In this document: positions 1,287 to 54,557 of the stretch, one piece after another
Position numbering within the stretch: the stretch's first letter is position 1
How the letters are laid out: each line of letters begins with the position of its first letter
NCBI RefSeq assembly: GCF_009389715.1
Contig: NC_052399.1
Coordinates: forward strand, 16,185,646 to 16,249,645
DNA length: 64,000 nt
Source of the DNA: Phoenix dactylifera
Lineage: Eukaryota > Streptophyta > Magnoliopsida > Arecales > Arecaceae
Reading direction: 5' to 3'
Made by a program: the position numbers and the translations under genes
Notes under the pieces: model-generated
Database searches by the model: none
What the model saw: only the letters and a program-made list of their open reading frames with translations
Told to the model about the DNA's origin: nothing

Positions 1287-4200
1287 TGTAATGATCAATG
1301 AACAGAAGATTGTAATTTTTGATAGTGGCCCTGGAATGGATGGTAGTGAGGAGAACTCTATATCAAAGTGGTATGTTGTTGCAGTAATTTTTGACTTGAT
1401 GCCTTTTTGATTGTGAACATTAAAGTTAGGTGTGCAAAAGTTACTTGGTGTAGTTTATCTATTCTAGAATAAAAGAGTTACTCATATTCTAACTGAATCA
1501 AAAATTTGTCTGATATTCCTTTCCCTGTAGGACCAGGAATCTGGGTCTGACTTGATTTCTGTTTCTGATGCAAAGGTTGTTGAGCCTGAAAGATCTGACA
1601 TGGTCAACTTGCAATTGGATTCTGATTTTAATGTCAACTTGAATGAGGAGCGAGAATCCTAATACTTAAACTCGAGAGAAGCAATCTAGGGGTTTAATAC
1701 TTGGTGTTAATGTTTTTTTTCCTTAAAATAACCTCACTTTTCTCTCTCCTGCTTTCCTTTTTTTTTTTTTGTTAATTTGAGAACTAAACTGCACTTTCGG
1801 GGAGGTTCACATACTGATGAAACAATTTGTGGCAGTAGAGTAAGATTTTTGTCATTGTCTAGGACTAACTTTTTTGTTACTATGTCTGCAGCATTCCTAA
1901 TGTCTCTCATCTTTGATTGCGATGAATTCCTATGACCGCAGTTATTTTTTGATGCCTACAAACTCTGTTCTATTACAAGAATAATAAAATATGGCCTCAA
2001 GTTTATACCTGATGCATGCAGGCCTTGTGCATTTTCGTTCTTGCTACTTAATTTGAATGCCTGATTATGTCTATATTCAGGTTAATATATGGAAATATCT
2101 TGTTTTTGATTTTCTTTTGATTTGTTTCTCGATGTTGGCTACTTACAGTTTGACCTTGTGTATATTTGTGCTGTGTCTTAACTGTTAATTGTTTGCAGTT
2201 CCCAAGATTCAGAGAAAATCTGTAAAAGAACTAAATATGGTCTCAACATAATAATTTTTGGCTTTTCTAAGAGACATCTTTTAAACATCATTTAATTCTT
2301 AGTGTTGGTTAGACTGCATAATAATGTTTATTGGTTAGTCAAGTTAGTTACTGTCATCTTTTGATAACTAACGAAATGTTGTACTCTTTATTTTATTTTA
2401 TTTTATTACTTTGGTTTTTTAAATATTTTGGAGTTCAGCACCATTTTCTTATTAATTTTTGACCCTAATGTAGGGGAAGGATGGGTTCATCCAATCACAG
2501 GCCGTCTAGGCAAATGGCTATTGGTGGGAAAGCCCCATATTTGATGGTAACCCTTGAATGCTCAAGAGTAGTGACATATTTTTAGTTTATCTATCGAGAT
2601 GTTTCATATTTTCTAAAACAATTCTGTTGCAGTATCCCCCTACACCATGCCTGATGTTCTTGACTTTTTCTACAATTTGGTTTCATAAATAGAGAGATAT
2701 ATAAACTTTAATTTCATGTTAGTATATTCTTTTAAAGGGTACTTAGAGAGGTAAAATTTATACTCTTGCCTTTTAGTAGACAAATCATGATATGTGACTG
2801 TTATATTTTTTCGAACTCAATGGTAATTTCATTTTGACCCAGCTGTTAGACGATATAGCAAACATATTTTGGGGACAGGCAATCTATGTTGTTATTGTGT
2901 TACCAACATCATGCCCTTCCTTTTATTTATTTTTAGAGACGAAATCAAGGAACTGTTTTGTGCACTATTAGGATCAATCTCTAGGGGCTCGTTGCATTAG
3001 AGACAATTAAAGTAATGTTTTTCACTTTGTCTGTGGTTCATCAAGTGGTCTTTCTGTAATTTTATTTGTTTTTTTTCTTCTGGATTTTGCATATCTTTAT
3101 ATAATTTAACAAAGCTTTGGATTATGGAGGATAAACCTTAAAAGTTCTAGAATGGAAAATATATCTTGTGAGAATGCTTGATCCTACATCTTTGTCTATG
3201 TGCAGCCTTTTTTTGGGATGTTTGGTTATGGTGGGCCAATTGCTTCAATGCATTTGGGAAGGTATAGGATTTGGTAGTTATTTCAAATCATGCACATTTC
3301 GAGTGTTATGTCTCAGATTCATTTTCTTGGTACATCCATATGGTGACTAAATTCACAGGCACGCTGTGGTTTCTTCAAAGACCAAAGAGTCAAAGAAAGT
3401 GTATACTCTTCACCTTTCAAGAGATGCTTTGTTAAACAAATCGACTCGTAAATGCGTTTGGAGGGTAAAACGTTATTCTAAGAGCGTAAATGATTATTCA
3501 ATCACTTATTTGTTTGTTTTTTCTGCATCTTAATTGCATGATTGTATACAGACCGATGGCGGTATCAGGGATCCCTTGGAAGAGGAAATCCAAATATCAC
3601 CTCATGGAAGCTTTACTCAGGTATCCTTATAGAAATGATTCTCCTTTATTTAGTTTTTACCTTGACTTTCGATTAAAGTAGTATGAACATGTTCACAGAT
3701 AAATACACTGCAGGTAGTATATAAGCCACTTAGGTTATGGTTCTTTGGAATTAGAATTTGTTTGTGAAGTGTCTTTTTTTTTCTAGTGTGCTTTTGACTG
3801 GTCATATCAAGAGTACATAAAGTTAAAAATCATGGAGAAAGTATCTATGCACACGGTAGGTAACTTTATAAAATTTTAGTCTGTCATTAACATTCACTTT
3901 TAGAGATTGATGCCTGGTCACTCTTCTGGGTTTCTTTTTTCTACTTCCAATTTTTATGGTAAAATTGGAATTTTATTAAGGGGTCGATAAATTTAGTAAA
4001 TTATTCTGCAAAATTAATGAAAACTACAACCAGCCAAAATTTACCTCTTAAAAACTGCATACCAACCTATCGAAGTCTCTGGTATATATGATTTTATTAA
4101 ATTTCGAAAGTTGAAACACATTTAGTCATTTTTGTCTTTGAATATTCTTGAATTGCTATGCTGCTTGTTTTCGTAACATGACTTTTATGTGGTGGTTCTT

Positions 4201-7200: not shown

Positions 7201-9832
7201 AATTACAATAGAGATGAGCTGACATATTATGCGTCTATTGGGCAGATTACTTATTTCTTATGTGCTATCTTATATTTTTTTAGATTAAATATAAAATATC
7301 TATGGCATAGAAGGTTTATGATGCTGTATGAGTTAGAATGTCAAATGGTAAGTTTTTCTATTGAACCTTGTAAAGTTCCACTTGAATATTAGGGCATTCA
7401 ATTTAATTAACTGTATAGAACATATATTGTTGTTGATCTGAAAACTGTGACCTATATATTTTTCAAAAAATTAGGGTTAATTATGCTTTTGGTTCTCCAA
7501 GTTTAGGTCAGATTTTTAATAGGTCCCTTAACTTCAAAAAGCTGAAATTTAGTCCCTATTTTTTCTCAACCGTTTTAATCTGGCAACTTTCTCTCACAAG
7601 AAGTTCTTGCGGCATTAATTGGTGATTACGTGGTAGAAACCGCTTAGTTAGGTTATTACAGGCCGATTATTTGATGATGTGGCGTATGGGTGATGATGTG
7701 GTAGAACAGATGAAATTTTTTATTTTTATGATGCGGCATATGGGCGATGATGTGGCACATCCTACGGAATTTTCTGCCCAAAATTGTCCAATCAGCGAGT
7801 GCCACGTCATCACCCATGTGCAACATCATCAGCTATATGCGGCATCATCACCTGTATGCTGCATCACCACTCACGTACCACAACTTATGCTTTTGGTCCT
7901 CTAAGTTTCACAAATGTTTTTACATGGTCCTTATAGTTTAAAAATTTCTAATTAGGTCCTTTGATTTTCAAGTGTGATTTATGCAAAACTAATATGAAGA
8001 GGACAGTTAAAACTAATTTGAAGAAGTAATATATATATAATTTTGAAAAAGGAAAATTGCATTTATAATATATTATGACACTGCTGATTGTACTCCATCT
8101 TCAATCATACCCTTAACCCCATCCTCCTTTTCCTCCTACCTTCCACCAGAACAGACATAAATATACACGAGAAAAAAAATTACATGATTTTGTATATAAT
8201 TAAGTGGTGAGTTTTCTATGTTTTGAGCAGTTTAAGACAAAGCTTATTTTTGTTAGATGGCTTTACTTGTTGGCCTCATCCATTTGGTTTGTAGACTTCA
8301 ATCACGGATTATTTTGACAGGTTGAAATCCAGGATCTAAAGATGAGGTTCTCAGAGACATTTAAACTTCAATGTTTCCTGAAGGATGTCTACTTTCCATA
8401 CATCCAGGTCTTTCCCTTGAGGCTAGTTTCCAGCTACATGTTATTTCTGAAGGCAAATAAATCACAAGACATACAGATATTGTTCGTTTTCCTAAATGTT
8501 TCTTGTTTCTCACTGTGATTTATTGTCGTATTTTTTTGGACCTCTACTTCAAAGTTAAAGTCAATCGGCAGACCAATCAGATGTCAATTGCTCTTTTGAT
8601 CTTTTAGTTAAATTTTTGTCTTGAATGAGCATCACATGGATAGTTGTGTAAGAAGTGACAATCTCTAAAATTCTAAAAGCTGTCGGTGGGTGCAGGTTTG
8701 CTGTCAATCTTGCACGGACTCCAAGTTCGTTATAATCTTGACTTAGACTTTTCTTTTGAACTTCTACCATCTACTAAAGCTTTATGAACGTAATGCAACC
8801 TAATTTCTTGAAATAATATTCACTAGAACATTTCTGAAAAATTTGCCTATCTATTTGTTGTTGTTTGTATGGATGTGTTATTGCATTGCATCTTTTCTGT
8901 GTTTATTGGTCTATTTAGCACGCGTTGTATATGCTCTGCAGGTTTTTACATATTTTCGATCAATTTCTGAAGTACATTTGGTATGGATGCCATTAACCAC
9001 TATAGTTGGCCATTATGATCTGTTTTAATATTGACATGGAGTGGATGCTCTGTGCTAGGAGGGTGTTGCGTGCATACTTGTCATATCATATCTGAGAGGG
9101 TCTGAGTGGAGAATATGATCATCAAATGTGAGAGAGATTTTGTCACACTAATCATTGAATATGATCAACCTGCAATATATATTCTTGGATATGCATGTTT
9201 GGGCCTTCATTCTCTATATTCGCTGGTACTGTGAATTTTGGTTACCTCTAATATCTGGACAGGATTTATAAAGCCTGTTTCCTTGCTCTGCAACAGAATG
9301 TCTATGATAATAGGGATGATTATGTGTCAGTAAATCTTTTCTCCCTCTTTTTTGGTCAGAAAATGAAAGAAATAAAAAGAACAAAAATCATTCTCCGCTG
9401 CTTACGTCATTTCGGTGATCTCTGGTTCTCTATATCATGGATAGGAGTTTTCATGGTGCACCTGTAGAGTTTTTCTAATTATGAGCTTGTGCAACATGAT
9501 GGATTCTGTGCTGATCACTTGCATAGGCATATGACAGAGAAGATGTGTCATTACTAACATGGATAAGTATGAACGACGTAGAAGTACTCAACTCTTTACC
9601 ATGGCGGTACCTGTTTGACACATAGCAGCCAGAAACTTATACTTAGGGTGGTGTGCCTGCTTTGGAGCCTTCTTCCTAAGCATTTCCTTTTTCTTCCTAT
9701 TTTATTTTATTTTATTTTCTCAAGTAGATTTGTTTCCCCTTACCTACTGCTTCCATCAAGGTAGACATTATATGGTGTATGATACCTTCAATTATTCTGT
9801 TGTACTTAATAAGAAAAAGTATAGGGTCCCTC

Positions 9833-9864
<32 letters not shown>

Positions 9865-12800: not shown

Positions 12801-15800
12801 GGTCCTGATTTTGTTTTACGATTGCATTTTGTGCTTAATCAAGAAAACATAACATCCAAGAGCCCGGGTATGTTTATTGTCCTGTTATACTGCAGTTACC
12901 ACTGTAACTTGATGATCTGTTTAGGTGTCATCTGTGACATTTTTATGTTCTGATTTTTTGTAGGGTCGGTTGTTTGTCGAGAAGCCAATGCGCGGTTGAA
13001 ATGTGTTTACTTTCCAATTGTTGAGGTATGTCATACATTTAATAACAGTTGAGATCATTTTTTATGATTATACATAATTTGTGGTGCTTCCACAGGGAAA
13101 AGAAAGCATTGAAAGAATTCTTGAAAAGCTTGAGGAAGATGGATATGGGATAAAAGAAAACTTTGAAAACTTTTGTCGTGTGTCTATACGTAGACTTGGT
13201 CGTCTTCTTCCTGATGCTAGATGGGTGAGATGCTGTTCTTTTTTTTATATTAATTTTTCACATCAAAAGTTTTATGAATATGAAATCTTCTATGAAGCAG
13301 ATACTGAATAAAAATTCCCAGAATCTGCCTAACTTTTAGCATTTCTTTGAAGTATAATTTCTGTATGAAATCCCGTCACATTCTTATATATTACCCTTTT
13401 CTGAGTTAGTAAGCATTTTTTTTTCATTATTTCAAATATTAGGATATTTAGTTGGAGCTTTCCTGAACTTAGTTGGAGCTTATGTATTACTATTTTCTGT
13501 ATTTGTTGTTGTGGCCAAATGTTTTGAAGTTTGTCTTGATAATTTCAACTTTAAGTTAAAAACCAGAAACCTTTCAGCTGATAATATTACACAGTTTATT
13601 ATAACTGAATTCCTGAACTTTGTTCTAATTGCTAGACACGATACATTGATTTCTATTTCTCTTTTGTACTTAGCAACAGTGACATTCTTCTTGTCTTTTA
13701 TCAAGGTGGAATTACTGAGTATTAGTAAAACGGGCACTACTACATTACCCCTAGGAGTCTTTTTTTGGAAGATGAAAGCGGTTGAAAGAGACTGTAGTCT
13801 TTCTAAGTCTGATTCTTGAAGACTTTCGGTCATGAATGGCTGTTTTATTGTAAATGATAAATTACAAGGAGCGAGGGCACCAGACATGCTTGGGACCCAC
13901 TTTCTTTTCTTTCTTTTTTTTAAATGCTAAGATGTTTGGTAGGGGGTTACTTACGTTGGCTTCCTAAATGTTTATTACTTACATGAATGGCAGTTTTTTT
14001 GTAAATGTTAAATTATTTGTTGGCCTATGATTATCAGTTGTTTACTTGTGTGTGGCCTAAGAACTGCATCTGCCTATTCTGCAGCAACCGCTTCCTTTAA
14101 TGGAAGCTAAACAAAGAAGGGGAGATAAAGCACAGCTGTTGAAGAGATGCTGCAGGAGGGTCAAATGCTTTGTTGGTAATGTGATTTTATTGACTGATAA
14201 GTCATCAGATTGATGCCTTCTGGTGGTAGCTTCTTCATGCGTGCTTGTTGATATCAATGTTCGCCTAATTAGTTCCTTTTTTTGTGTTATGGTTGCAGAG
14301 ACTGATGCTGGTTTTTCTCCAACACCTTCTAAGGTATTCATCTACATGTTAATGATAAATGGTTTCCTTTATGAATTCTTTATGATTTGTTTTATTGCTA
14401 GTTTAAAATTTTGGTTATTATTGCATTTATCCTAGACTATCAATTTTTTGTATTATTTCCTTAAATGTAATTGTAATCTCTATTGTAGTTAGCAATTTAC
14501 ATTAAATTTGTCTTTCTTCTTATCATATTCATGAATATTCTCTGCAAAATGGTGCTGCATCCTTGTGAGGTTAGTTGTAGCTGGCAATTTACAGTAAATC
14601 ATCTTCTTTCCTTTTTTCATGGATATTATTTAGAAAATCATGGAGTTCCATTTCATAGAGTTTACATGGTTTTTTTTTTGTATTTTGTTCTTTATTTTGT
14701 TGATTTATTGAATTTACTTGTGTCGGGTAAGAAATATTTCAATTTTCAATCGTCACAAGTTATTTGTTGTTGAAAATAGTAGCTATTACCATTTGTGTTT
14801 GATGTGAAAGTTGTCTTCTATTTCTAGCCATATTTTTAGAGGCCCTTTTGACCTCTGAATGTTGTATGAGTAGTGGTGGTTTCATATGTTGTCTCATAGG
14901 TTTTTGAATTATTGCATCATTATCGAATATTTTAGGGTTTGCTTGGTTCTCACTATTAATTGGTAAGAATAATTAATTGGTAATTTCTCTTTTTGAACTT
15001 TTTCAATGATTTTATGTCTAATTAGATGTTTTTTTGGTATTTTCTTCATGTTTTTCGATGTTTCTGTGATCCCGGTTGGAATTATCAACATAGTTAGGAG
15101 CAAGGAATGCCGTACCGGTCCGTACCGGCCGGTACGGGCCGGTACGTACCGGTCCGGTCCCTGACCGGTACCGGACACAGATGAAAACCGGTATTTCCGG
15201 TTTTCTTCTGTGAACCGGCCGGTACGGAGACCGTACCGGCCGGTACCGCTTGGTACCGGCCTCGTACCGGTGCGAACCGGCCGGTTCGCACCGGTACGGT
15301 GTTTTTTTTTTTGGGGGGGGAACCACAGCGCCTCGCTGTGGGTTTTTTTTTTTTTTTTGATGGGAAAGAAAGTGGTCCGGACCGGTACGGTACCGGTCCG
15401 GCCGGCCACCGGTACGCCGATCCGGACCGGTACGGCGGACCTTGGTTAGGAGGCACATCAACTCACCTTTCTAACCAAGCGGTGTTGTAGTCTTGTATGG
15501 TTATCTCATAAGGAACGCGCGCCGTGCTATATGCATCTCGGATTTCTCGCTGAAGCTTGGCTCTGAGAGGTATCCTCTGGTTGATAATACGGTTGTGGAG
15601 AGGTATCATCTGAGATACTCTTGGATGCATAGGGTAGTAGCCACATGAAGATGCATTAGACTCACCATATCCATATCAGTATGGGTCATTGGCTATCTGT
15701 GGCTGCGGATAATAGGATCTATTATACGATTTGAAAACTGATACATCTATAGATCCTACCACACGTGCGAGGTTATCTGTAGTTGCATCGTGTCCTTCTG

Positions 15801-18800
15801 AATGGCCTCGAGAAGCTCGTCTTTAATATGCAATCGTATCCTTACGGGCTTTATCAGATCGTTCACCGTGGTACCTATCCTGTGCAACATGTGTAAACTA
15901 GGACTTATCGGTGAGTTGAAGACCACCCTGCATCTGTGTCTCATAAACGGTGGTCTTCTGTCCTCCGCTCCCTTTCTAGCCAGCAGATTTATGGCCACTA
16001 AAACTGCTGTTTCTAGTCTTTGAATCTGAGTAAACTGATTCTTCCTCGACACTCTCCATTAGGACTGTAGATGCTTCTTGTTTCTTTTTTAGTGTGTTGG
16101 GAGAATGTATGTTGCCCTCTTGACCGAGTCAATTGAGTAACGTAGTGGCCTCGTTCTAAGCATCTCTCGATCATATCTCTGAGAGGATGTCTTGGACAAG
16201 AAGTCGTATGGTGATCGACTCCCTTATGGTTGTGGCTAATCAGCTGGAAGGATTCATAGAATATTACACTTAGCCCATTGCTCTACATCGACCCTAGCCT
16301 CGTTGGCTACGAAACTGGCTGGTCGTGGAGGCGATCTTTGCTTATCAAGCTCCAGCTTTTGCTGCTGGCCGGTCGTGGAGGCGATCCTTCCTCCCGAATG
16401 CACTTCAGCATCAACCTCAGATTGTAGTAAACATACATAAGTTTGTTGAGGCGCTTCTGTGTTAAACAGTTCCTTTGCTTGCTGTTGATGAGGGCGAAGA
16501 TGGACCAGTTGCGCTCACAGCCACTCAAGGAGACTATCTGGGAGAGGATCCATATAGCTAGCCATATCATCCTACTATAATTGATCATCCAGGCTCGCCT
16601 GCATAGCAGCCTTAATCTGTGCCTAGTCATTTGGAGCAGATGTCTCTTTTGACTTTCTGGAGTGATAGGAAGGTGGCTCTGCCGCTCGACTGTTCACCTC
16701 CTCCTTTTTGGCAACCCTTTCCTTCGATGCTCTGAAATCAGCGAAGTGCTTTTTCATCAACTGCCGAACCTCCTGTAGGCATTTTCGGCATATAGATACG
16801 GCTGGATAACCACCAGCTAAGTGCTGCTTCAATCTAATTATCCCTTCTTCCTTAAACTGTGTTGCACCGGTTGCACTTCTAATGGTGGTGACTCGAGAGC
16901 ATTTACCTATAATCCTAACCAATGTCACGCTCTGACTCTTTTTTCCTTGATGTCTCCGTTGCTGCAAGTTTATCAAGTACGTCAGTTTATCAATTATTTA
17001 AAAATAGCAATTTTTTTTATGATAATGATGTTTATTACTTCAAAAAATACATCTAATTTATCAAATACAAAATACTAATTTTTTATTTTTTTATTTATAT
17101 ATTTTAAATAACTTTTAAATTTAAAAATATATTTAAATATGATAAATTCAGAAAAATATGATTTCTATCTAAGAAATTACTTCTGAATTATGTAATACGT
17201 ACTAATTTTTTATAATTCTTGGTTCTATTTATATATTTTTTATTATTTTTTGAATTTAAAAATAAATATTTAAATATTAATATTTTAAAAAATTAATTTC
17301 ATCTCAGAAAAATATATGTAAAACCCAATAATGGATGCTGCATATATTTTTTCTAGGCTCTTAGGCATGCTTTAAAGGCTAGTTATTTCTCAATTTTTTT
17401 AAATTTAGGCTTGGCCATTGTGCGCATGATCGTATCGAAACTTGAATGAATGGATACCAAATTTTATAGAGAGTAGTTTGCATGCTCCTAAATATGTTTC
17501 TGATTTTATATATTTTTCTAAATTTATTTATTTTATTATTTTTATTTTTAATTCAAAAATATATTTTTAATTTTTAAAAATTATATATAATTTGAAAATC
17601 AAAAAGTTTTATGTCATCTTGTAAATTGCCCATAGATCTACAACATATAATAAAATCAAGCCAAAATCAAAAATTTTGGCATGATCTTTCTTTATTTTGC
17701 AATTTTTAAGCTATTTTTTCAAGCCTCCAAAAATAAGAGAATGAGAATGGGGGAGGGTAGTATCCTTTATTTAGGCTTGGATCTTCTTTTTGAGCTGCTG
17801 AATCGACGAGTTTTTTGAGTGGTTGGGAATGGGAAGCGGCGGAAATTAGGACTTCCCAACTTTAATCCGATTCTTTAAAGCATCACACAATTGCACAGTG
17901 AGGCGCCCGGTTCGGAACTGAGTTGACTCAGTGCGTACCGGCCGGTTCCCATGGAGTTTGAACTGAACTGGCCAGTTCGGATCCTTTCCAGCCTGTTTCA
18001 ATCGGTTCGGGACCGGTTCTGGCTAGTTTGGTACGAGTTTCGGCTGGTGTGGTGCTGGAATCGAAAATAATAAACGAACCGATCTGGTTTCGCACCGGGT
18101 CGGCTCGGCAGTGCCTGAATCAGGCTGTTCGGTAGACATTGGTTGGTAGAATTGCATCCGCTTAGAGTTTTAAGTTGCAACAATTGGAGTTTACATGTGA
18201 TCATCATTTGCACTTTGTGTCTGTGTTTGTGATCTTGCCATTGAACCAGTCAAGGTAAAATCATAGTGATCGCAAGCTTAGGTTGTGTTTGTTGTCACAT
18301 TTATTTTTCTTGTTTTTAAAAATGGAAATTTGAAATTTTCTTGATACCTATTCCCTCATTTTTTCAAAAAACAAAGATAATATGTTTTGTGTGGTAAGGT
18401 ATCTTTTAGCTTTGGAAGCAGAGAAAAGTACAAAATTACTAGAAAATTAGCCCCTCCTTCAGCCTCTGGCAAGCCTTGCAAGTTCTGTGGCCCTAGTCTG
18501 CCAGTTTGTTTGTCTTCTTTTTTAGCAGCAATCCCCATTTCGCAGCGGCAATAGAGGTCCCCCACTCCACCTCCATCAGCCCTTCGCTGCACAATAGCTA
18601 GCCTAGTGCTGCACCCATCGGTTATCTCAGTGTCATGCCCAAAGGGCATAACCCTCTCTGTTCTCTTGCTTGTGGCAGCAATGTTAGTAGTGAAGGTGAG
18701 AGGAGCTTAGGACGGGCCCTCTTGGTGTGATTGAGCTGTACATTGCTTATGATGAGGCAGTGGTGGTGGCATTAGTGGAGGATGGTGGAGGTATTGATGG

Positions 18801-25671: not shown

Positions 25672-25748
<77 letters not shown>

Positions 25749-28700: not shown

Positions 28701-31700
28701 TTGATGATGCCAAGGTGAAGTGAAGGATAATGCATTAAATTACTGAATTCTGCAATTTGATTGCTATATTTGAAATGATGTCAGCTTTTGTTTTGTTTTG
28801 TTTTGTTTTTTCCTCCGGTAAGTGAACTTTTGAGTTCATTTATTTATCCAAGCTCAGACCAAGCAAAAAAGTTGCCTAGTATGAACTCTTAGACCATTCA
28901 TGAAATTGGATTATGTTAAAGACGTTGTCAGGCAAACTTACATGTTCATGATTGTTCTATTAAGTTTCTTCTTTATATAGACTGTATAATTAATTATTAT
29001 TTGTTAAATCAATCATATGAAAACTTCTGAATCTTGTATAAAGTATAGAACTGAGTGACTAGTGCTTGAAGTCTTTATGCACCCGTGACCTTGGAACAGA
29101 TCTACTCAATGTAATCTGCCCAAATCCACTGAAACCAGGACTGGCCTGAACCACTCAAAATGACCATCCTTTTAGAGAACCAAGTCGTATTCAAAACAAA
29201 CTAGCTAGTAGATTTTCAACTTGTAATGTGGATCTCTATCAGATGAAATAACTGATAATGTCTTTTTGTCTGTTTTGAGAACGTGTTCCTTACCTTTAGG
29301 TAATGTGTTTGATATGATATGCTTCAGAAATTATCCAATTCTCCAAATTCTTTTCTTGGATATCATTATAATAATATGATCATTGGACATGCAACAATTT
29401 CTACCAAACTCCACTTTCTAGTTGCATGAGTTTGCTCAGTTCCATTTGCTAAATTTTGGTGGCTATAACTTTTTTCTACCTAAACCAAGGGTGCATCGTC
29501 TTTTTTCACTAAATATTGGTGGCTATAACTTTTTTCTCCAGTGGGAAGTTTGGATTAAGTTGCATGTCACAACTGTTTATCCTTCATGCAGGTGTTTGCT
29601 GGGGTAAGAATGCAGTAAGATAGTTAAATTGCTCCGACATAATTCAATAACATTATATTTTTGTTTAGTTAATTTATGCTCATACTATTCTCATTTTCTT
29701 CTGTTTAGTTTAATATATACGTTGTTGTACCAGCTTTAATCTATCTGCAGCAGTTCCTACAATATTTTTGTGATAAGAGCAGTCCATGTTTTATGAATGT
29801 CTTTCTCAGAAACTTGATGATGCTATGGCTGAATTGGGGCTGCGGATAAGAGAACATGAGGGCAAAATAAAAATGCTCGATGATCAAAAGACGCAGATTG
29901 GAAAAGAAATTTATGATCTGAAAGGTTCTAAAATCTAAACTCTTCTCCATCACTCCTTTCAGCAACGACTTTCTTTCTGATTTGAGCTAGAATGCAAAGA
30001 TTAGAACATTGATTATTGATGATCTATCAATACGATGAGCATATTTTCCATATCATCAAGTTCCATTTTATTAAAATAGGATCTGAGACTTATTTTATTT
30101 TAGTGATGAATACGCGGAGGAAATCTTCATATTGACGGCTTTAGTTGTGTAGTTACCTCAAGGATAAGATATGTATTATGTGAAGTCATTGGTGTATCTT
30201 TCTACCATGTGTGCCAACTGGTATCAATGCATATCACTTTTGTATACATCAGTATAGGCTGATGCCTTGAGGTTTGAAGCTATACTTCTCTTTCCCACTT
30301 TAAACATGTATCTGACCATCCAGAGTACTATTTGTTTCTACTCTAGATGACCTTGAAGGCTTGAACTCTTGTTGCTGATCACTTTTGTTTTTGGGGTTTG
30401 AAGCAAGAATTAGATGCCTCTACCAACCAGGGACTAGCATAGGGTACCTGTGATACAAGCCTGGATTGCTTACTCACCCCATGAAGACCCATACTGCGCT
30501 GTATCACTCACTACTCCTATTTGTAATTTAACTTTTTCCTGCTAATTGGAAGTGGACCAATACCAGCCTGTGCTAACCACACGTCACCCCCTATTGCAGG
30601 ATGTATGGTACAGGCTGGTGACTGATTCTGGTTCATACCTTGTTTTTTACATCCTTGATTTGATTTTAATTGGATCAAAGGTTAGAAATAAAGTATTCAT
30701 AATGTATAATCTTTGTGCAATACCGAGTAGAGTATAATTGGCAATGTATAGATAACATCTGTACGACAGTTGAAATGTGTTGATGATCTGTAGGCAAAAT
30801 CACATGTCCCTTTTAGTTTCATCATGGATTTTGAGCTTGTTTGTATTGTTAACTTGTAAGATAGTGGGATAATGTATTGGTTTTTCTCCACCATTTGAAA
30901 CCAAAGCAAAGCATATGTTGAACTGCAATCAACGTAGATGTTTGAGTTATGATCTGGAAATTTTCTGTAGATTAATGCAAAGCTGTGCCTATTTGTTTGT
31001 TGTCTATGTACTTGTATAAAATAATTAAAATTGTTCTGTGTTCAAAAGTATTGAATAAGCAATGCAGTTTAGCATGCAAGATGCATGATTCCTTTTCACA
31101 AGCGCATGTTGGCTGTAGAAAACAATTGGCATCCTGTGTGAACCCTTAACTGGCATGAGCACAATAGACAGTACTTCAATCTGTGATGGGACTTGATGAG
31201 AAGTTGTTAAGAGTGAAGAAGGACCATCAGTAGCATCATCTCCTCAAGATAATCTGGGTTTTCCTATACCTTAGAGAAGTTAATGACATAATGATGGAAG
31301 AAAGAGTTGATTTATGTTGAGTTGGTTGAGGTTGTTAGGCTTGCTTTAGTCACAATTCCTTTTTTTAAGGGTCACCATTCTAAAAGAAACCACCTTTGCT
31401 TAAGCGGTTCCTGATTCTCCATTTTGGAGTCCAACCACTTAAGCAACTGCTGTATGCCAGCTTTCTGCCTACACATGTCCAAGCATCCACATAGGCCTAG
31501 GTGAGTCAGGCTTGGACTAACTTTTGAGGCGAGTCAGGTTTTAGGCAGAGAAAATTTGGCTATTAAGGGTGTCAAGCAGGTAGATTATAACCCCCGTGAT
31601 TTGGTATAGCTTATAGCTTATAGGTTTCACTAATTCTTATTTATGGGTTATAGCTTATAGGCTTCACTAATTCTTGATTTGGTACTTATTTTCTACTTGA

Positions 31701-37700: not shown

Positions 37701-40700
37701 CATCGTCGAAAGCCCTATATATCGGATCTGCATACTTGAGCTCCACTTTCTTCTGAATATACTTTTGCCTCAACCGCAGATTGTAGTGAACATATACAAG
37801 GTCGTTGAGGCACTTCCGTGTCAAACGGTTCCTCTGCTTGCTGTGGATGAGGGCGAAGGTGGACTAGTTGTGCTCACAGCCACTCGAGGAGATCGTCTAA
37901 GAGAGAATCTGGATAACCATCCGCTTAAGATTTTTTGCGGACGCCCTAAAATGAATCCACCATTCAGCTACAAAAATATTGAAAAAAATAGATTAGTACC
38001 ATATTAGCTGCAAAAACATGAATCCACCCTCTAACGCCGGGTGAATGTCCTTCTGATGTGTAGCGTACCTGGATTCATAGTTGTCTTACTCACGATAAAT
38101 GCTCACTGTCCAAAGCTGTTGTTGCCCTCTAAATAATTTGGTGTATGAACAAGAAGCGTGTTGTATTATATTAATAAAAGAAGATACCGGTAAACTTATA
38201 CATGTTACGAAAGTTAAGTTACCTCTTCTAGATATAAGGTCACGTCTTCTAGCTCAGTCTTCATCTTGTAAATGACATTACGCAGAGCCGCCAGAAGTCC
38301 ATCATCCATACCAATTCCAAGTCCGTTGTACTGAAATCGAGGATTTAGGTAGTATGATGCATATGGACGACCATGTCTTAGTAAACTTGTCCAAGTACAA
38401 CCATCAATATAATTATCAATGTTCTTCTTGCTTATCTGTTCGGCTAGATGCAATTCTTTACCCATTTGGGCATCCCACCGCTGCTCAGTGATGTTGATGT
38501 ACTTCTGGGCATAGGCTGGATCTGCCTCCATAATTTGAACCTTTGCCCTCTCCATCATGTGATACAGGAAACCTATCTGGCGATACCTCTCGCTATCCAC
38601 GGCCCGCAGCACTTCATATATGGTTTGATAGTTTAACTGTCGCAGTGACCCGCTGACAGAATGTGTGCCTCGTCACCAAGTCTTCCATCTTGCTTCCTTC
38701 AGTGCCGGCCTGGGCATATCTACTTTTCTACCACTCGGGACTGACAAACATCTGACGTAGAGCTTCTTTCTTCTCGAGAAGGCTATCAAGTGCAATTTAG
38801 TTGGTAGCAAACCGTGTGACTCCTGGTCTTAGAATCTGTCTCTCTGCAAACTTCTTCATTAGTGAAAGGACTCAAGTATGGTTTTAAATATACCTGGTGA
38901 TGCGTTGGGCTGTCTCCTTCGTATGCTGCACTCTACGGATCTTCCTAATATCCATCAGCATGATATCGATGCAATGTGCAACGCATAGAATCTACAAAAT
39001 ATATAGCTGCTTCTCCATCAAGATCTCTTCGGCAGTCTTATATTGCGACCCATTATCAGTGATGACCTGCACGAAATTATCCTCTCCTACCTGATCAATC
39101 ATCTCCTTCATAAGTTTTGAGGACATACGTGGAGTCGTGCATTTGATTCGAAGCATCTATCGACTTGTGAAAGTTTCGTATCATAATATGTTACAAAGTT
39201 GATGATGCTCCGCTTGGTGAGACCGGTGCAACCATCACACATCACAGTCACTCTATATGTGGGCCACTTGTTCTTGTAGGAGGCAATCCATTTCTCTAGC
39301 TTCTTATTGTTGTCAAAAAGCTCACCATAAATGTCCTTCAGGCCTGGAGGATCTACACTGGGACCAGCAACCTGTATGGCAGAAATGGCAGACCTGTATT
39401 GTCTTCCACATTCGCTGGGACGTGGCTGAAGTGGAATAGATCCAATAGCTCGACATATATTCTTCTTTCTATCCTTCTTCAACATTGAGTCAACCCTCTG
39501 CTGCTTCGCTTCTCTGCTGGAGAAGGCATGCAGATCTAATCATGGATTGACGCTTCTTGTAGAATCTCTCTAGATAACTTTTTTTTGGCCACCGAAAGAA
39601 CTCAGGATAGATGCAATCTGGCCATTGCCTCTGCGGACGCCCTCCCTGCCTGAGGATGTTTTCATGAACTTTGGATCTTGCCTGCTGCTCGCGGAATTGG
39701 TACTCAACTTGTAGAACAAGGGCCCAAATCGAGCCCTATGTCTGGCCACCTCCTGCTGCCACTGATCATCCAGGCTCGTCTGTATGGCAGCCACAATCTG
39801 TTCCTCTTCATCTAGACCCTCGACTTCCTCTGACTCTCTTGAGTGATAGAAAGGTGGCTTTGCCGTTCGGCGTTCCACCTCCGCCTTCTTAGCAGTCCTC
39901 TCATTCGCTCCTTTGATTTCAGCAAGGTTCTTCCTCATCAGCAGCCGGACCTCCAGTGGGCATGTAGGGCGTAGCTACCTCATGGAAATTACCAGCTAAG
40001 TATTGCTTCAGCCCAGTTATCCCTAAAATTGGTGCCGAGCCTCGAGCATTCGCCCATGCACCCAGCCAATATCGGGTTGTGAGGGGTTGGTTTTCCTTAA
40101 TGGCTTCATTCCTGTGAGAATGATAATTTATTTATTTATTATTTTTTATAGTATCTGTTTTTAAAAAAATTATTTGTTATAAATTCAGAAAAAGAAGATT
40201 CCCGTGAGAATGACGTACTACTATTTTTTCAATTTTTTTCCATTTTAATATTTTTTATTATATTTTATATTTAAAAAATAATTTTGAAATAATAATATTC
40301 TAAAAAATAAAAATATTTATGTCAACATGCACATCCTCCATAGATCTACAACATATAAAAAAATCATGCGCAAATCGAAAAATTTGGCATGTTCTCCTCT
40401 TATTTTGCAATTTTTGAGCTATTTTTTCTAAGTCTATTAAAAAAATATTAAAGAAAAAAAAAGGAAAAAAAATATATCTTAATTAGCTTTCACTGGATTT
40501 TTTGAAAAAGAAACACTCTCTCACCTCCTCAATTTTTTTCCTTCTGAATCTATTTTGGAAAGGCCTTCTTCGGCCTTCCCTTGCCTCGACCGTTTAGCTT
40601 TTATAGCCAAACGGGCGAGGTGTCGAGAAACTGTGGCCAACATGGCCACAATGATGACAGCGCGCCCGCTGTCGGCCACTTTGGGCCACAGCGCTGCACT

Positions 40701-48600: not shown

Positions 48601-51600
48601 TCCCTCCCCATCTCCCAAATGTCGCGGAGCAGGAGATGATCTCCTCCATAACTGCTCTTGTCAGTCAGTTTTCATGGAATCATATTCTTTTCTGAAATCT
48701 TTTTTTTTCCTAGAATTTTCTGCTTTAGAGCCTGTGCACCCAAGTGATCTCTCTGCAATGCTAGACGGTGAAATGCGTGATGGAGAACACCATAATCTGG
48801 AAATAGTGAAGAACCATACTCAGGTTTGTATGATCATAGTTTTCAGCATCCCTTAGAAGATATGTGCTTTAAATGGAAATCATCATCTGTTGTCATATCT
48901 TTGATAATCCATCACATAGATTATTCAATTATGTTCTGTTTTGGCATTTTATTGCCAAATATTCCATCTGTTTAAACATGTGACAGCAAAGCCGGGAATT
49001 TTCTCATCCCTGGCTTGTTATTTTTAATCTGACAGTGCTGCTTAATTTTGTGCAGAAACTACAAGATGAATTACAAAAACTGGCATTGAAAGTCAAACAT
49101 CACGAAGACAACATGAAATTTCTCAAAACTCAGATGGATAACATTGATGAATCAATTCTTGATATGCAAGGTTAGCTCAATTCTTTGTGTATCTAATATT
49201 TCTCCTTGATGCCAAATGCACTATGTGATTCATCTCATATAGGACATTAGAGACTGAAGGTGGCGTAAGTATCTGCTTCATTATAATCTAAATGCACCAA
49301 CCTGAATGATGGATCTGGAAAATCAGAATTATAGTTCCAGTTTAGAAAAAAATTACATTCCTTGTAATTTGAGCAATAATTTCTTGTCTTTTCTTACCCC
49401 CTTTTTAATCTTGCATATATATGAAACCCAACTCTTCATTCTACTAACAAGAAGAATTTTCTTAGTCAATCTTGGAAAGTACCATTCATCAAGTGCAGCT
49501 TTGGAGCAAAACAATGATGTTTCTGCCATGCAAAGTGAGCAGCAGACAGTGGGAAAGATTTTGCAGCAGGAGAAAGCAGCAGCTGGCATAATATGCCAGA
49601 TGAAAATTCGTCATGGGTTACAAGCATCAAAGTTACAATTGACAAAGGATGTGCTTGGTATTGTAGCTACACTTGGAAAAGTAAATGATGATAACCTTAG
49701 TAGGTTAGTTCGTTGCAGCGGTTCAATTTCTTCAGTTGATGGAGTAGTAGGACAACAGTAAACCTATATGCAAGTTTAGTTCTATACTGTTCAGTTCTAT
49801 GATGTGACTTTCTTCTGAACTTGATCTTCAGGCTTTTCTCGGAGTACTTGGGATTGGAAACTATGCTGGCTATTGTTTGCAAGACATATGAGGGCATTAA
49901 AGCCCTTGAAAAGTATGATAAAGAAGGCATGATTGACCAGAATGCTGGTCTCCATGGACTTGGGCCGTCTATAGGGAGACTTCTGAATGGAAGATTTCTT
50001 GTCTTTTGTCTTGAAAACTTAAGGTGCGTATCCAGAAAAAAAAATTTCAGTTGTGGACAAATTTGTGCTAGACATTCATATTGTCCTTCTCATACAATTG
50101 TGGATAGTTTCAAAGATTTTATGCATGATACATCAAGATAGGTGCATTTAATTCATATGATGAAGCTGTAAGCAAGGACTTGATATGTCTCCATCTTTCA
50201 GAAAGTGGGGTTCTAAACAGTGGAATGGAGTAAAAGGATTCATATGGTTGATCCCGACTAATTTAGGATTAAGGCTTAGTTGAGTTGAGTTTATTCTCAT
50301 GTGGAATAAATGTTACTAAGGCATTATGATTTTTAACCCTTTTGCAGACCATATATTGGTGAATTTGTACCTGAAGATCCACAAAAGAAACTTGCTCTTT
50401 TGAAGCCAAGGCTACCTAATGGGGAGATTCCACGTGGCTTTATAGGATTTGCTGTAAACATGATAAATGTGGACCATATGCACTTATCTTGCCTCACACC
50501 CAATGGGCATGGCCTGAGGGAGACCCTATTTTATACCTTATTTTCCCGCTTGCAAGTATATAAAACAAGAGCTGATATGCAAAGTGCTCTGCCTTGTGTA
50601 AGCGATGGTGCCATATCTCTAGATGGGGGAATGATCAAAAGCAGTGGTCTTTTTAACCTTGGTGATAGGTGAGCACCTTATGTTTCAAAGTTTGCCGATA
50701 AATTTGTTGTAATATTTTAAATTATGCTTGTTATTTTCCAATTTCATATAATGAAAGTAAATTTGTTATTTTCATGTAAATATGCTATTTGCAAGTTTTA
50801 CCCAAACATCAGCAGTGGAGAACTGTCAACTTATTTTGATATGTTTTGGGCTCATGTTCTTGTTCACATCTTTTCAGTTTACATGTCATAACACATTCTT
50901 TAGCATATTTACTTCCTATAATAAATTTTTCCAGGCCTTGTATGTGACCTATTCTGCAATGATACAAAGAACATTAGAAAGCTGATCTTGTTCAATTTGT
51001 AATATTAAATATTACATAAAATCTTCATGTTTCAAGAAGTTTTAATACCTTAATGTTCTAAAACAAGTTGATAATTAGATATGTTCATGAGTTGGGCCGG
51101 GCTTTGCCCAAAGGTCAACACAATTTAGTTAGGCTTAGGCTCAGGCTCGACTCAGCCTTGCCCGCCCTTCAGGCTTACCTTCCAAGCCTCGAGCTCGGCA
51201 CTTTCTTGGGCCTCAAGCTTGGAGCCGGACCTTAGGCTTCATGACCATTTTTTATTTTTTTAAATGCTAAAAAATACTTAAAATATTTAAAAAATGCTAA
51301 TGTGAATGGTTAATTATTGCCAGCAACTTACAATATCTATTATCCATTAAGTTTGCATACTAACAACAATTATCAATTACTACAAATATATTGAATATAA
51401 ATAAAAAAAATTCAGTCCAGGCCGGCTTTAATCCCAAGCTAGATCCCAGCCTGTTTATTAGACGGCGTATTTTCCATGCTCGGCCCGGCCCTTCAAGTCG
51501 AAAACCTTTGGACCAAACCTGCTCTAAAGAATTCAGGCTAAAGCGGGTGTGGTGGATTGCCCAGCCTATGAATAGGTCTTTTGATAATCTAGTCCCCTTT

Positions 51601-54557
51601 TTTTAGCCCCTAAGTTAATTCAATACATGCAAACAAAAACATAGCATATACATAAACTAATTTTAAGAGGCTCATTTAAATGTTGATTAAAGCTCTTTTC
51701 CTATGGTATGTAATAATAAGATTATGTATGATTTACTATGCATCAATAATATTCTATATTTTTATAAATATCGATAATGAATTCTTTATGATTCAGGAAG
51801 GATGTTGAGGTTAAATTTCCAATAAGTCCTGGGATTTCAAAACCTGCAGATGTCATTGAAATTGAGGAGAAACTCAAACTTATGAACTGGCAAAAAGAAA
51901 GGCTTGAAGAAGATGTCCAAAGAGAAGAAGCATTACTAAACAATGCAAAAAATTTATTCAACATTCAAAAGCAAGAGCTTGTGAAGTACCTCGGCGAGAC
52001 TGCATCTCATATCAAACAGGTACCACCGTAAACTGATCTTTGCTTTCTTTACTTAGGAACCATATCAGGTTTGAGTAGAGGAATACTAACACTATAACAG
52101 AGGATCTAATGTCACTCAGTGCCTTATAAATTTTTGGCATTTGGACTGCGGATACAATGCTATTGCATGCCAAAGAAATAATGGTTATTATTTTATAGAG
52201 TGGTGATAGGATTTCAATTTCATGTTGAATATGCTTTTGGATTTCTTTTCCATGGAAATCACTTCTCATAGCATCTTATCAAAGCAAAAGCCAAATCTTA
52301 TTGTTCACAAGATGCCTAAAGAAGGACAAGAAAGATTCTCAGTGGTAGTTTTGGTTTCGTTGCATATCACAGATGAAGTTTAGGTTGTTGATTATTATCA
52401 TTCATAAACTTCCTTTCTTCTTCTTTCTTTTTTTTGGTTTTTTTTCCCTGATAGCATGCTTACTTAAAGGCATTCAGTGGTTAATAGATTAAGACAGCAT
52501 ATTGAACCACTGCAAATATCCAAATGTATGTCTTTCTTTTCCCCCTTTTCTGTATGTGGCTGTGTGGGTGGGTTTGTGTGTGTGTGTGTGTGTGTGTGTG
52601 TTTTTCAGGGGTTGGGGGGAGGGGCGTTAAGCTATAGCTGTCGAACCGTATGACAAAACCCTGGTTTAGGGGATGGAGAACATAAAGAGTTCATTTGAGA
52701 TTGTAGGATATGTAAATTCTCGAAGACTTGAGGAATGAAAGCTGAGATCATATGCATAATGAAGACCATGACGCAATTATAGGATTTCAATGATGTTCTA
52801 AGGGCCAATTATTTGCAGATTGAGAGTGTGCTGCTGAAGGCGAGTTGTGGTTGTGTTGAATGAAGACGCAAGTTTTGTGCAGTCAAGGAGGTTGGTTTAA
52901 TTTGCTCGAATTCCAATGGATGGGAGAAGACTAAGAGAGTGACCCTTGGACCACCAAAGATGGTCAAAAAGGATATAGCAAACTAGTTGCTTGGTAGATT
53001 TTTTGATCCCCTTTCTAGGATTGTTTGGAATGGAGTTTTTTATAAGAGAAGAGTATCAGAGTATTTCAATAGATTATGGTATTTAGGGAGGCTCGAAGCC
53101 TTATTATTTGTTAGCTTGGATCAGTGTTGTTAGGTGACTATTATGGATGCCTAGGCATTTGTTTAATAAGATTATGCAACAACATACACTTCACGAGCAC
53201 ATGCATTCTGCAATTATGTAAATGCAGTTTGGGGCTTTCATGCTTACATGATCCCTTTGAATAGGTTTTGCCATTGGTTTCTTCAAAATTTGGGGGGAAA
53301 AAAATCCAAGCAGATGGTTGAGCTTTTTGTATCCGGTAACTTACAACTGACTTTCCTGCTATTCTCATCCTTCTTAAATTAATTTATGGGCAGCCTCTTG
53401 ATTATCTGTACAATAATTACCTTAGAAGCTATCTCTTGAGGAATCAAATATACATGTTGACAAAGAGGTTCAATTTGTTAACAATCTACCCACTGTACTT
53501 ACAATGCCTTGTTTATTTTAAACCATTAAATTTCCAAGTGGATCTTGTTGCCTCTAAAGGAGGTAGTATTTGGCAAGATGTCTACCCCATACATCCTGGC
53601 ATAACAAATCTCACCTGAGGCCTATTCCCTATCTTCAGCAATAATCTCCTCCCAGCAAAAAAAAAAATTATGCCACCTAGGAAGTAACCCACTTTTTAGG
53701 GGACATGCCAGAACAAAAGGCACAATAAGGATGCCTCTACAGAAATCCTAGATAAAAGATCACATTAATAAACAGAAGAAAAAATAAGAAGGCGCACCCT
53801 GCACTTTTTCTTGAGTCATGCAGTTTTTTGAAGGATATTCTTAGACATACTAAACATATACTCAAAGATTTCTGACTTGCATGTGACCCTCCTCAAAAGG
53901 GCACTTTACTCTTCCCTCATGCATTTGCAGCATAATTAAAGGATATTGTTAGAATCCAATCATTTTCTCAAGACTAATGTTAATCGGACATCGAGATACG
54001 GGATTTATATGTTACCCTCCTGAAATGGCAGTGCTTTGATCTCATGATGATGACTGTTCTAACAATTAGAGTAGTACAGCTGAGGTCATTCGTAAGTATC
54101 TTGGAATCCAATCATTTTGATTCCTGAAAATGGGCATGAGTTAACCTAAAACTGGATTCTCCTAACATGCAGCATCATCTTCTCACTGGAACATAGGAGC
54201 TCAACAAGGGATATGTGTCTCCTTGCCTTTGATTTTGTTCTGCAGTTGCATCTTAGAAGACCTTGTTTTTCTAACACAGCATCTATGGCAAAATAAAAAT
54301 GAAATTCCACATAAAGCTCCATCCCTGTTTTTCAGAGTACAGGATTTGAGAAATCACAGAAAAAAAGCACTCTAGCACCCACTGCAATTAAACTGCAGCA
54401 AAGGACCAATTTTTTTGTTTACAGATGCATAGAACCATGTGGTGGATTAAAATTCTAGTAGTGCACATTTGGACTTTCGTTTTTTGATGGGCAGGCACAA
54501 TCGATGGCTGGCAGAACGGGGACATTCCGACTTGAGCTCCTTCCCAACATGACTTGA
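45644..54557 (+). CDS. DMS3: DMS3-like SMC-hinge protein (RNA-directed DNA methylation)
   Basis: Proposed exons: 45644-45670, 47722-47749, 48714-48823, 49056-49170, 49466-49703, 49832-50023, 50348-50668, 51797-52019, 54495-54557. All phases fit and give 438 residues, close to Arabidopsis DMS3 (about 420). Exons from 48714 to 52019 are strongly supported: a coiled coil with [15 protein letters not shown], then the hinge with [67 protein letters not shown] and DGAISLDGG, then a closing coil. The first two small exons rest only on splice signals (CAG before GTAAGT at 47750 is ideal) and frame. There is no ATPase domain. In Arabidopsis DMS3 joins DRD1 and RDM1 in the DDR complex that supports Pol V transcription at silenced loci. 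Reading through the donor at 52020 gives stop TAA 52029-52031 and a 421-residue form. Confidence 0.85.
46349..46435 (+). mobile_element. Short tRNA-like retroposon (SINE-like)
   Basis: The body has an A-box-like TGGCAGCTCATTCCTAACGG and a B-box-like GGTTCAAAT, and ends in an A-rich tail. Flanks ATCACACTT (46340-46348) and ATCATACTT (46436-46444) agree at 8 of 9 bases. The small size fits a tRNA-derived retroposon rather than a full SINE. It sits in the first intron of the DMS3-like gene. Confidence 0.55.
48382..48654 (-). mobile_element. LINE 3' fragment (RNase H end) with 18-bp TSD
   Basis: CTCTTGTCAGTCAGTTTT occurs at 48364-48381 and again at 48655-48672. Read on the minus strand, the insert encodes [20 protein letters not shown] and SGGTLWP, the C-terminal RNase H-like part common at the end of plant LINEs. 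It ends in a (CA)n and poly-A tail, which appears as poly-T and (GT)n at 48378-48404. This is a 5'-truncated LINE insertion, 41 bp from the splice acceptor of exon 48714-48823. Confidence 0.8.
51076..51580. mobile_element. 505-bp hAT-like MITE with GGGC/GGCTC subterminal words
   Basis: TTGATAAT flanks exactly on both sides (51068-51075 and 51581-51588). The left end is TAGATATGTTCATGAGTTGG and the right end read in reverse is AAGACCTATTCATAGGCTGG. Repeated words of the TTAGGCTCAGGCTCG and GGCCCGG kind lie inside each end, around an AT-rich centre. This is the known plant TAG-G-TGTTCATG-GC terminus. It lies in the intron 50669-51796 of the DMS3-like gene. Confidence 0.85.
52020..54494. other. 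Last intron of the DMS3-like gene (or 3' UTR of the short form)
   Basis: This 2.5 kb stretch separates the last coil exon from the proposed terminal exon. It contains a (GT)n tract at about 52577-52601 and no recognisable coding sequence. Confidence 0.55.

What the first reader, a model, noticed from the sequence alone, without database searches (positions are those of the whole stretch)
1287..54557. GMI1-like and DMS3-like hinge genes sit head to tail and look like a partial tandem duplication
Two SMC-hinge genes lie on the same strand 3.3 kb apart. Their hinge exons correspond one to one in order and phase: 115/115 nt (phase 0 to 1), 217/238 (1 to 2), 192/192 (2 to 2), 321/321 (2 to 2), then a closing coil exon. 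Shared words include [19 protein letters not shown] and LAIVCK. DMS3 has no ATPase part. The simplest reading is that DMS3 arose by duplication of the 3' (hinge) half of a GMI1-type gene, and that this locus keeps the ancestral arrangement. To my knowledge the two genes are unlinked in Arabidopsis.
Basis: partly seen in the sequence, partly recalled or inferred. Interest (0 to 1): 0.8.

Follow-up and report, generated by a model that had tools for sequence, protein, structure and literature searches.

The report
DMS3 born beside its parent GMI1
In date palm a key DNA-silencing gene (DMS3) sits right behind the larger repair gene (GMI1) whose tail half it copies, and the same neighbourhood recurs in other flowering plants as distant as pipevines and walnut, so this silencing part was probably made by an ancient partial gene duplication.

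Summary
Confirmed and extended. The window is date palm: the DMS3 model equals the deposited Phoenix dactylifera protein letter for letter, and the GMI1 tail is an exact suffix of P0121. GMI1 (GHKL ATPase, then hinge) comes first, DMS3 (hinge only) next, same strand. Five consecutive exons correspond in order and phase. The proteins align at 41% over 304 aa, E 5e-75, but fourfold sites are saturated (13 of 39 identical): an old duplication. The pair is not a palm peculiarity: 25 contigs carry both genes; among the 10 linked pairs with tags in one series, 8 are 1-3 genes apart; five database proteins fuse GMI1 and DMS3 parts in that order. Neighbours are seen in magnoliids, rosids and asterids besides the palm. 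Many assemblies lack the linkage. DMS3 and GMI1 form two fully supported groups, and one Ginkgo-type protein with GMI1's Ig-like domain joins the branch between them. Best reading: DMS3 arose by partial tandem duplication of a GMI1-type gene, most likely on the angiosperm stem; rooting and timing rest on one gymnosperm-type sequence. The hinge kinship was known; I saw no statement of the linkage in the papers my searches turned up.

The parts
1285..1371 (+). GMI1 exon (GHKL ATPase part), codons 172-200 of P0121; the first GMI1 match in the window
   Evidence: tblastn of P0121, 100% identity
2475..28714 (+). Further GMI1 exons (rest of ATPase part and the middle up to the Ig-like region), scattered over long introns; not every exon was placed
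   Evidence: matches of P0121 and of a recalled Arabidopsis GMI1 used only as a lead
29810..29924 (+). GMI1 coil exon, 115 nt, phase 0 to 1
   Evidence: AG/GT; exact in P0121
34579..34795 (+). GMI1 hinge exon, 217 nt, phase 1 to 2
   Evidence: AG/GT; exact in P0121
34916..35107 (+). GMI1 hinge exon, 192 nt, phase 2 to 2
   Evidence: AG/GT; exact in P0121
35615..35935 (+). GMI1 hinge exon, 321 nt, phase 2 to 2, holds [19 protein letters not shown]
   Evidence: AG/GT; exact in P0121
42056..42296 (+). GMI1 closing coil exon, up to and with the stop codon
   Evidence: AG acceptor; exact in P0121
42297..48757 (+). 6461 bases between the GMI1 stop and the DMS3 start codon; no relic of the GMI1 ATPase part found here or on to 64000
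   Evidence: tblastn of P0121 against 42297-64000 at E up to 1 gave only two DMS3 hinge exons
48758..48823 (+). DMS3 first coding exon (start codon as in P0001)
   Evidence: the frame stays open upstream to an AG at 48713 (sequence), so an earlier start is possible
49056..49170 (+). DMS3 coil exon, 115 nt, phase 0 to 1
   Evidence: AG/GT
49466..49703 (+). DMS3 hinge exon, 238 nt, phase 1 to 2
   Evidence: AG/GT
49832..50023 (+). DMS3 hinge exon, 192 nt, phase 2 to 2
   Evidence: AG/GT
50348..50668 (+). DMS3 hinge exon, 321 nt, phase 2 to 2
   Evidence: AG/GT
51797..52019 (+). DMS3 closing coil exon; the frame reads on to a stop at 52031 if the last intron is kept
54495..54557 (+). DMS3 last exon of isoform X1, with stop

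Best explanation
DMS3 is a 5'-truncated tandem copy of a GMI1/SMCHD1-type gene. A head-to-tail duplication of the 3' part (a coil exon, three hinge exons, a closing coil exon), or of the whole gene with loss of the 5' part, put a hinge-only gene downstream of its parent. The copy gained its own start and kept the hinge with its two coils, but no ATPase. In Arabidopsis such a hinge dimer is the DMS3 core that RDM1 and DRD1 bind to form the DDR complex for RNA polymerase V, and MORC6 is proposed to lend ATPase activity in trans (papers); GMI1 is linked to double-strand break repair. The neighbourhood dates at least to the ancestor of magnoliids, monocots and eudicots; the duplication most likely happened on the angiosperm stem, after the split from gymnosperms. 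Shown here: exon correspondence, saturation, two groups in the tree, linkage in several lineages, an intermediate gymnosperm-type protein. Inferred: direction (GMI1-type parent), timing, and that date palm DMS3 works as in Arabidopsis.
For: Five exons correspond in order and phase. 41% identity over 304 aa, E 5e-75, while neither protein met any SMC hinge model of Pfam at E up to 1, so this is closer than general hinge kinship. Saturated fourfold sites, 13 of 39. DMS3 and GMI1 two fully supported groups. 25 contigs hold both types; tags 1-3 genes apart in Aristolochia, Reevesia, Rhamnella, Shorea, Xanthoceras, Asimina, Ulmus, Juglans; fused models P0138, P0140, P0178, P0171 and P0006, in which the first hinge part scores as GMI1 and the second as DMS3. 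P0304 (Ginkgo-style id) has GMI1's Ig-like domain plus hinge, scores 379 bits for DMS3 and 353 for GMI1, and at 13 diagnostic sites agrees with DMS3 at 5, GMI1 at 4, neither at 4. PMC4607528 (passages) finds DMS3 with confidence only in angiosperms, with Arabidopsis GMI1 separating it from the gymnosperm relatives.
Against: The root is not fixed: P0304 would also fit a duplication older than seed plants with P0304 on the DMS3 side (mean identity 39.4% to DMS3, 36.2% to GMI1). Many assemblies show the two genes on different contigs: of species named in full on both sides, 16 of 29, among them Acorus, Tasmannia and Asparagus. Protea and Liquidambar have them on one contig but 584 and 1355 tags apart. 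No DMS3 of Amborella or Nymphaeales came up in the capped lists, so linkage at the crown of angiosperms is not shown.
Confidence: 0.82

Rival explanations
1. The duplication predates seed plants: gymnosperms have both a GMI1 and a DMS3-side copy, and the Ginkgo-type protein is the DMS3-side copy that still carries the Ig-like domain; angiosperm DMS3 later lost it.
For: P0304 is slightly nearer DMS3 in mean identity and HMM score, and its stretch after the hinge resembles that of DMS3; on the full region its nearest rows by path are five DMS3 rows. Pinus tabuliformis is listed with three DMS3 genes (PMC10082083, passage).
Against: The core-hinge tree puts P0304 nearer the GMI1 crown (0.29 against 0.40); diagnostic sites are split 5 to 4; it needs a second Ginkgo copy that I did not see in capped lists; PMC4607528 could not tell gymnosperm sequences from GMI1.
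Confidence: 0.3
2. Internal duplication and fission: the hinge block was first doubled inside one GMI1 gene and the gene then split, so that read-through fused transcripts would be a memory of the ancestral state.
For: Four database proteins read a GMI1 with its hinge and a DMS3 as one protein (P0138, P0140, P0178, P0171); P0138 stands for 29 sequences.
Against: Fused models can be prediction errors; P0171 swallows a third gene in between; P0304 has a single hinge block.
Confidence: 0.12
3. The adjacency in date palm is a recent rearrangement that brought two old relatives together.
For: The genes are unlinked in Arabidopsis and lie on different contigs in 16 of the 29 species named in full on both sides.
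Against: Neighbouring tags or fused models in magnoliids, rosids and asterids. Same contig in 13 of 29, against 1 in 10 by chance: 1.4e-6 (0.002 at 1 in 5).
Confidence: 0.02
4. DMS3 and GMI1 hinges are independent recruits from other SMC hinges.
For: Both belong to the SMC hinge fold (6ois for DMS3; SMC hinges follow it).
Against: Same intron positions and phases, E 5e-75, shared motifs; other SMC chains appear at the fold level with 10-15% identity.
Confidence: 0.01

Closest known systems
DMS3 / IDN1 of Arabidopsis (PDB 6ois, 6oit)
   Same: Hinge flanked by two coils, no ATPase; phmmer E 4e-122 to 6ois_C.
   Different: In Arabidopsis it stands on chromosome 3, away from GMI1 on chromosome 5 (locus names); in date palm it follows GMI1.
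GMI1 of Arabidopsis and SMCHD1 of mammals
   Same: GHKL ATPase (PF13589, E 9e-11; SMCHD1 6mw7 E 1e-9 with a GMI1 profile) and a C-terminal hinge.
   Different: The SMCHD1 hinge was not reached by sequence at E up to 1; no hinge-only neighbour of SMCHD1 is known to me (recalled, not searched).
Partial tandem gene duplication that leaves a truncated paralogue next to its parent
   Same: Head to tail, same strand, exon phases kept, 5' domain missing.
   Different: The truncated copy is a core factor of a pathway (RdDM), and the pair has stayed linked in several angiosperm lineages.

Membership tests
DMS3 | SMC-type hinge flanked by coils, about 400 aa | tested here: met
   window exons give P0001 (405 aa) exactly; aligns to 6ois_C over residues 14-380
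DMS3 | no GHKL ATPase in the gene | tested here: met
   no HATPase hit in P0001; no ATPase relic from 42297 to 64000 at E up to 1
DMS3 | groups with other DMS3 rather than GMI1 | tested here: met
   100/100 with 24 DMS3 rows
DMS3 | binds RDM1 and DRD1, acts in RdDM | not testable with these tools
   known for Arabidopsis (PMC6718625, passages)
GMI1 / SMCHD1-like | GHKL ATPase and C-terminal hinge in one protein | tested here: met
   PF13589 at 143-269 of P0121; its tail aligns with DMS3. Codons before 172 were not found in the window, so part of the ATPase is seen only in the deposited protein
GMI1 / SMCHD1-like | induced by DNA damage, role in recombination | not testable with these tools
   reported for Arabidopsis (PMC5651269, passages)
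Partial tandem duplicate pair | adjacent, same strand, homologous with kept exon phases | tested here: met
   no other coding gene was found in the 6461-base gap, where only GMI1 and DMS3 proteins were searched
Partial tandem duplicate pair | linkage shared by lineages that split after the duplication | tested here: met
   not in every species, and not seen for Amborella or Nymphaeales
Angiosperm-stem duplication | rooted tree with gymnosperm homologues outside DMS3 plus GMI1 | tested here: inconclusive
   one gymnosperm-type row, root not inferred

The most novel reading that the evidence does not exclude
One partial tandem duplication of a GMI1/SMCHD1-type repair gene on the angiosperm stem supplied the hinge core of the Pol V recruitment complex, in the same interval in which RDM1 appeared, so that flowering-plant RdDM was partly built from a neighbour of a DNA-repair gene; the two genes have stayed neighbours in many lineages since then and in some species may still be transcribed through.
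Probability: 0.5. Interest if true: 0.75.

Novelty: new member of a known kind. Interest (0 to 1): 0.62.

Why it matters
DMS3 is one of six RdDM proteins reported as restricted to angiosperms, and that study could not tell gymnosperm hinge proteins from GMI1 (PMC4607528, passages). A shared GMI1-DMS3 neighbourhood gives the gene a place of origin and a parent, and makes the timing testable by reading one locus in Amborella, water lilies, cycads, Ginkgo and conifers. It also ties the plant SMCHD1 relative to RdDM by descent, and warns annotators: some GMI1 proteins are filed as DMS3, and some models fuse the two.

Tried and rejected
Pfam gave no SMC hinge model in either protein at E up to 1, so domain hits could not be used. 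A GMI1 profile against the PDB reached DMS3 and the SMCHD1 ATPase but not the SMCHD1 hinge, so no animal outgroup was added. The search of the window's own genome did not complete. The collection scans (viral and prokaryote contigs) were not used, as no plants are held there. The three large protein searches list only the best 120 of 654, 335 and 290 hits, and two of them scored only part of the candidates, so absence from my lists means little, Amborella DMS3 included.

Rows dropped: 20 of 240 proteins with incomplete or doubled hinge before the wide tree; the careful tree used 49 chosen of 309 proteins; five long GMI1 rows were left out of the core tree and four of them out of the diagnostic-site count. 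In the wide tree seven GMI1 rows (Tarenaya, three named grasses, three without a readable name) fell next to the DMS3 stem under a midpoint root; they are long branches and not in the careful trees. P0154 and P0002 also have two hinge blocks, but both of one kind, and were not counted as pairs.

The first tally of linkage (26 same contig, 17 different) is biased: a shared contig length reveals a pair even if the name is cut off in the listing, but two different contigs do not. Restricted to species named in full on both sides it is 13 of 29, Xanthoceras counted by its tags and Camellia sinensis and Gossypium hirsutum, whose records come from different assemblies, counted as unlinked. Assemblies without names (source lgn) were left out.

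The Arabidopsis dimer residue G339 could not be placed, because the chain numbering did not fit. The fold model has pTM 0.39 and the TM-scores to DMS3 chains are low (0.19), so only the ranking by E-value is used.

Full report
What is there. The window is from date palm. A seven-exon DMS3 model equals P0001, named DMS3 isoform X1 of Phoenix dactylifera, letter for letter. Five GMI1 tail exons give the last 361 residues of P0121, 1597 aa, exactly; P0121 lies on a contig of the same length as P0001, 31,698,078 bases. The first GMI1 match is codon 172 at 1285; no match to codons 1-171 was listed. The GMI1 stop codon ends at 42296, the DMS3 start codon is at 48758, 6461 bases on, and the last DMS3 exon ends at 54557. 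Both are on the + strand, GMI1 first.

Exon correspondence. Coil 115/115, hinge 217/238, 192/192, 321/321 and a closing coil exon, with phases 0-1, 1-2, 2-2, 2-2 in both, and AG/GT at each shared boundary. The 21-nt difference is a single 7-aa gap. For four internal introns in 846 nt the chance of coincidence is about 5e-11. The proteins align at 41% over 304 aa, E 5e-75. Exon DNA identity is 46-60%, and 13 of 39 fourfold-degenerate sites in two exons are identical, near what unrelated third positions would give. The copy is old. Of the GMI1 ATPase part nothing was found between 42297 and 64000 at E up to 1.

Is the pair shared by other plants? The protein listings give, for many hits, the length of the contig and a locus tag. 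A contig length that agrees to the base marks one record. Among 261 named proteins with contig data (142 scoring best as DMS3, 119 as GMI1; the four full fusions score best as DMS3), 25 contigs hold both types: Phoenix, Musa, Magnolia, Aristolochia, Asimina, Nelumbo, Macadamia, Telopea, Protea, Malania, Liquidambar, Rhamnella, Ziziphus, Rosa, Argentina, Humulus, Ulmus, Juglans, Mangifera, Acer, Melia, Theobroma, Reevesia, Shorea and Lycium. For nine of these the GMI1 name is cut off before the species, which is taken from the DMS3 partner. Xanthoceras adds one by tag (ACOSP7_031351 and 031352), though the cluster's longest contigs differ.

Results against. My first hand tally set 26 linked against 17 unlinked cases (Tasmannia, Acorus, Asparagus, Aquilegia, Stephania, three Papaver species, Hevea, Quillaja, Corylus, Eucalyptus, Pterospermum, two Hibiscus species, Lonicera, Solanum dulcamara). 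That tally favours linkage, because an unlinked case is seen only if both names can be read. Among species named in full on both sides, 13 of 29 are linked; by chance at 1 in 10 the probability is 1.4e-6, at 1 in 5 it is 0.002. Assemblies are related, and whole-genome duplicates may hide or mimic linkage, so these figures are rough. Some unlinked contigs are short (Papaver, Aquilegia, Hibiscus).

Neighbours, not only linked. Of the 10 linked pairs with tags in one series, 8 are 1-3 genes apart: Aristolochia H6P81_014368/014369, Reevesia 0152300/0152200 (steps of 100), Rhamnella 23914/23915, Xanthoceras 031352/031351, Shorea 362030/362020 (steps of 10, as I read them), Asimina 009874/009876, Ulmus 024338/024340, Juglans 035352/035355; Protea (584 tags) and Liquidambar (1355) are far apart. 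Five database proteins contain GMI1 and DMS3 parts in that order: P0138 (species cut off), P0140 (Neltuma), P0178 (Centaurea), P0171 (Buddleja) and P0006 (Fragaria, only the tail of a GMI1 hinge). In each the first part scores higher as GMI1 and the second as DMS3, for example 446 against 265 and then 552 against 361 bits in P0138. The order inside one model implies the same strand with GMI1 upstream. In Buddleja a nucleotidyl-transferase-like stretch lies between (PF01467 in the listing). Buddleja and Neltuma also have a separate DMS3 on another contig. Aristolochia is in Piperales and Asimina in Magnoliales, Shorea in rosids, Centaurea in asterids. By parsimony the neighbourhood goes back at least to the common ancestor of magnoliids, monocots and eudicots. 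In Arabidopsis it is broken (At5G24280, At3G49250; PMC7541909, passages).

Trees. In a FastTree of 220 rows the 118 DMS3 rows form one side of a branch. In a careful tree of 49 rows, DMS3 (24) and GMI1 (24) are each one side of a branch with 100/100 and 100/99 support; on 192 hinge-core columns without five long rows (24 and 19 rows), 100/99 and 100/99. Amborella and Victoria GMI1 fall on the GMI1 side in the 49-row tree; they were among the long rows left out of the core tree. If the root lies on the Ginkgo branch, the DMS3 lineage split off before the crown of angiosperms.

The intermediate. The third search returned P0304, 512 aa, source label Gb_24289, an id style I recognise as Ginkgo. 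Its first 80 or so residues align with the Ig-like region of GMI1 (from 1096 of P0121), which DMS3 lacks, and the alignment runs on through the hinge, 37% over 518 columns; to DMS3 it is 40% over 368 columns, hinge and coils only. Its hinge scores 379 bits for the DMS3 profile and 353 for GMI1. At 13 sites that tell DMS3 from GMI1 it agrees with DMS3 at 5, with GMI1 at 4, with neither at 4; it keeps 78 of 92 sites conserved in both. It attaches to the branch between the two groups, 0.57 from the DMS3 crown and 0.50 from GMI1, or 0.40 and 0.29 on the core. An AlphaFold model (mean pLDDT 74, pTM 0.39) shows strands at 2-80, then coil, hinge region and coil; Foldseek ranks the seven DMS3 chains of 6ois and 6oit first, then SMC chains. 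GMI1 architecture with an undecided hinge is what a gene from before the duplication should look like. It could also be a DMS3-side copy from an older duplication; one sequence, perhaps an incomplete model, cannot decide.

Literature. I saw passages, not whole texts. PMC4607528 reports DMS3 with confidence only in angiosperms, RDM1 likewise, and gymnosperm sequences separated from angiosperm DMS3 by Arabidopsis GMI1; a single-gene intermediate would explain this. PMC5651269 states that DMS3 lacks the ATPase of GMI1 and SMCHD1 and that MORC6 was proposed to supply it. PMC6718625 shows the DMS3 hinge dimer with RDM1 and a DRD1 peptide. [quoted passage not shown] the listing counts no mention of GMI1. 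PMC10082083 lists three DMS3 genes for a pine. Searches for DMS3 with GMI1 (2 papers), with SMCHD1 as well (1 paper), with tandem duplication and hinge (0 papers), with Amborella and for the two Arabidopsis locus names (1 paper) brought no statement of the tandem arrangement in what I saw. The founding papers on DMS3 (2008) and GMI1 (2011) did not come up and were not read; the hinge kinship is known, and the linkage may be mentioned there.

Verdict. Observation confirmed; interpretation supported and widened. Not shown: a root with non-seed plants, the state in Amborella, exon phases in other species, and any function in date palm.

Noticed in passing
window 14900-17720 and 37090-40430: Two related transposon remnants inside the GMI1 gene, 77-83% alike in pieces; a Dimer_Tnp_hAT match at 16307-16693 minus and a sub-threshold DUF659 match at 39108-39536 minus suggest hAT elements.
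   Followed up: partly
window 62253-63251 (-): Open frame of 333 codons without an intron, with UEV and Vps23 core domains: an ELC/TSG101-like ESCRT-I gene.
   Followed up: partly
window 60618-60689 (-): tRNA-Gln(CTG) gene.
   Followed up: yes
window 21916-22581: Tandem repeat with a spacing of about 335 bases, copies 87-93% alike, inside the GMI1 gene.
   Followed up: no
P0143, P0243, P0250: Proteins filed as DMS3 that score as GMI1 by HMM (names; scores): database names mix the two.
   Followed up: yes
P0138, P0140, P0178, P0171, P0006: Gene models that fuse GMI1 and DMS3; P0138 stands for 29 sequences, so real read-through transcripts are possible.
   Followed up: partly
P0154 (Thlaspi), P0002 (Dichanthelium): Second hinge blocks of the same kind: GMI1-like in Thlaspi, DMS3-like in Dichanthelium.
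   Followed up: partly
P0127 (Ensete): Model with a bHLH gene in front of GMI1, which may be the upstream neighbour in bananas.
   Followed up: no
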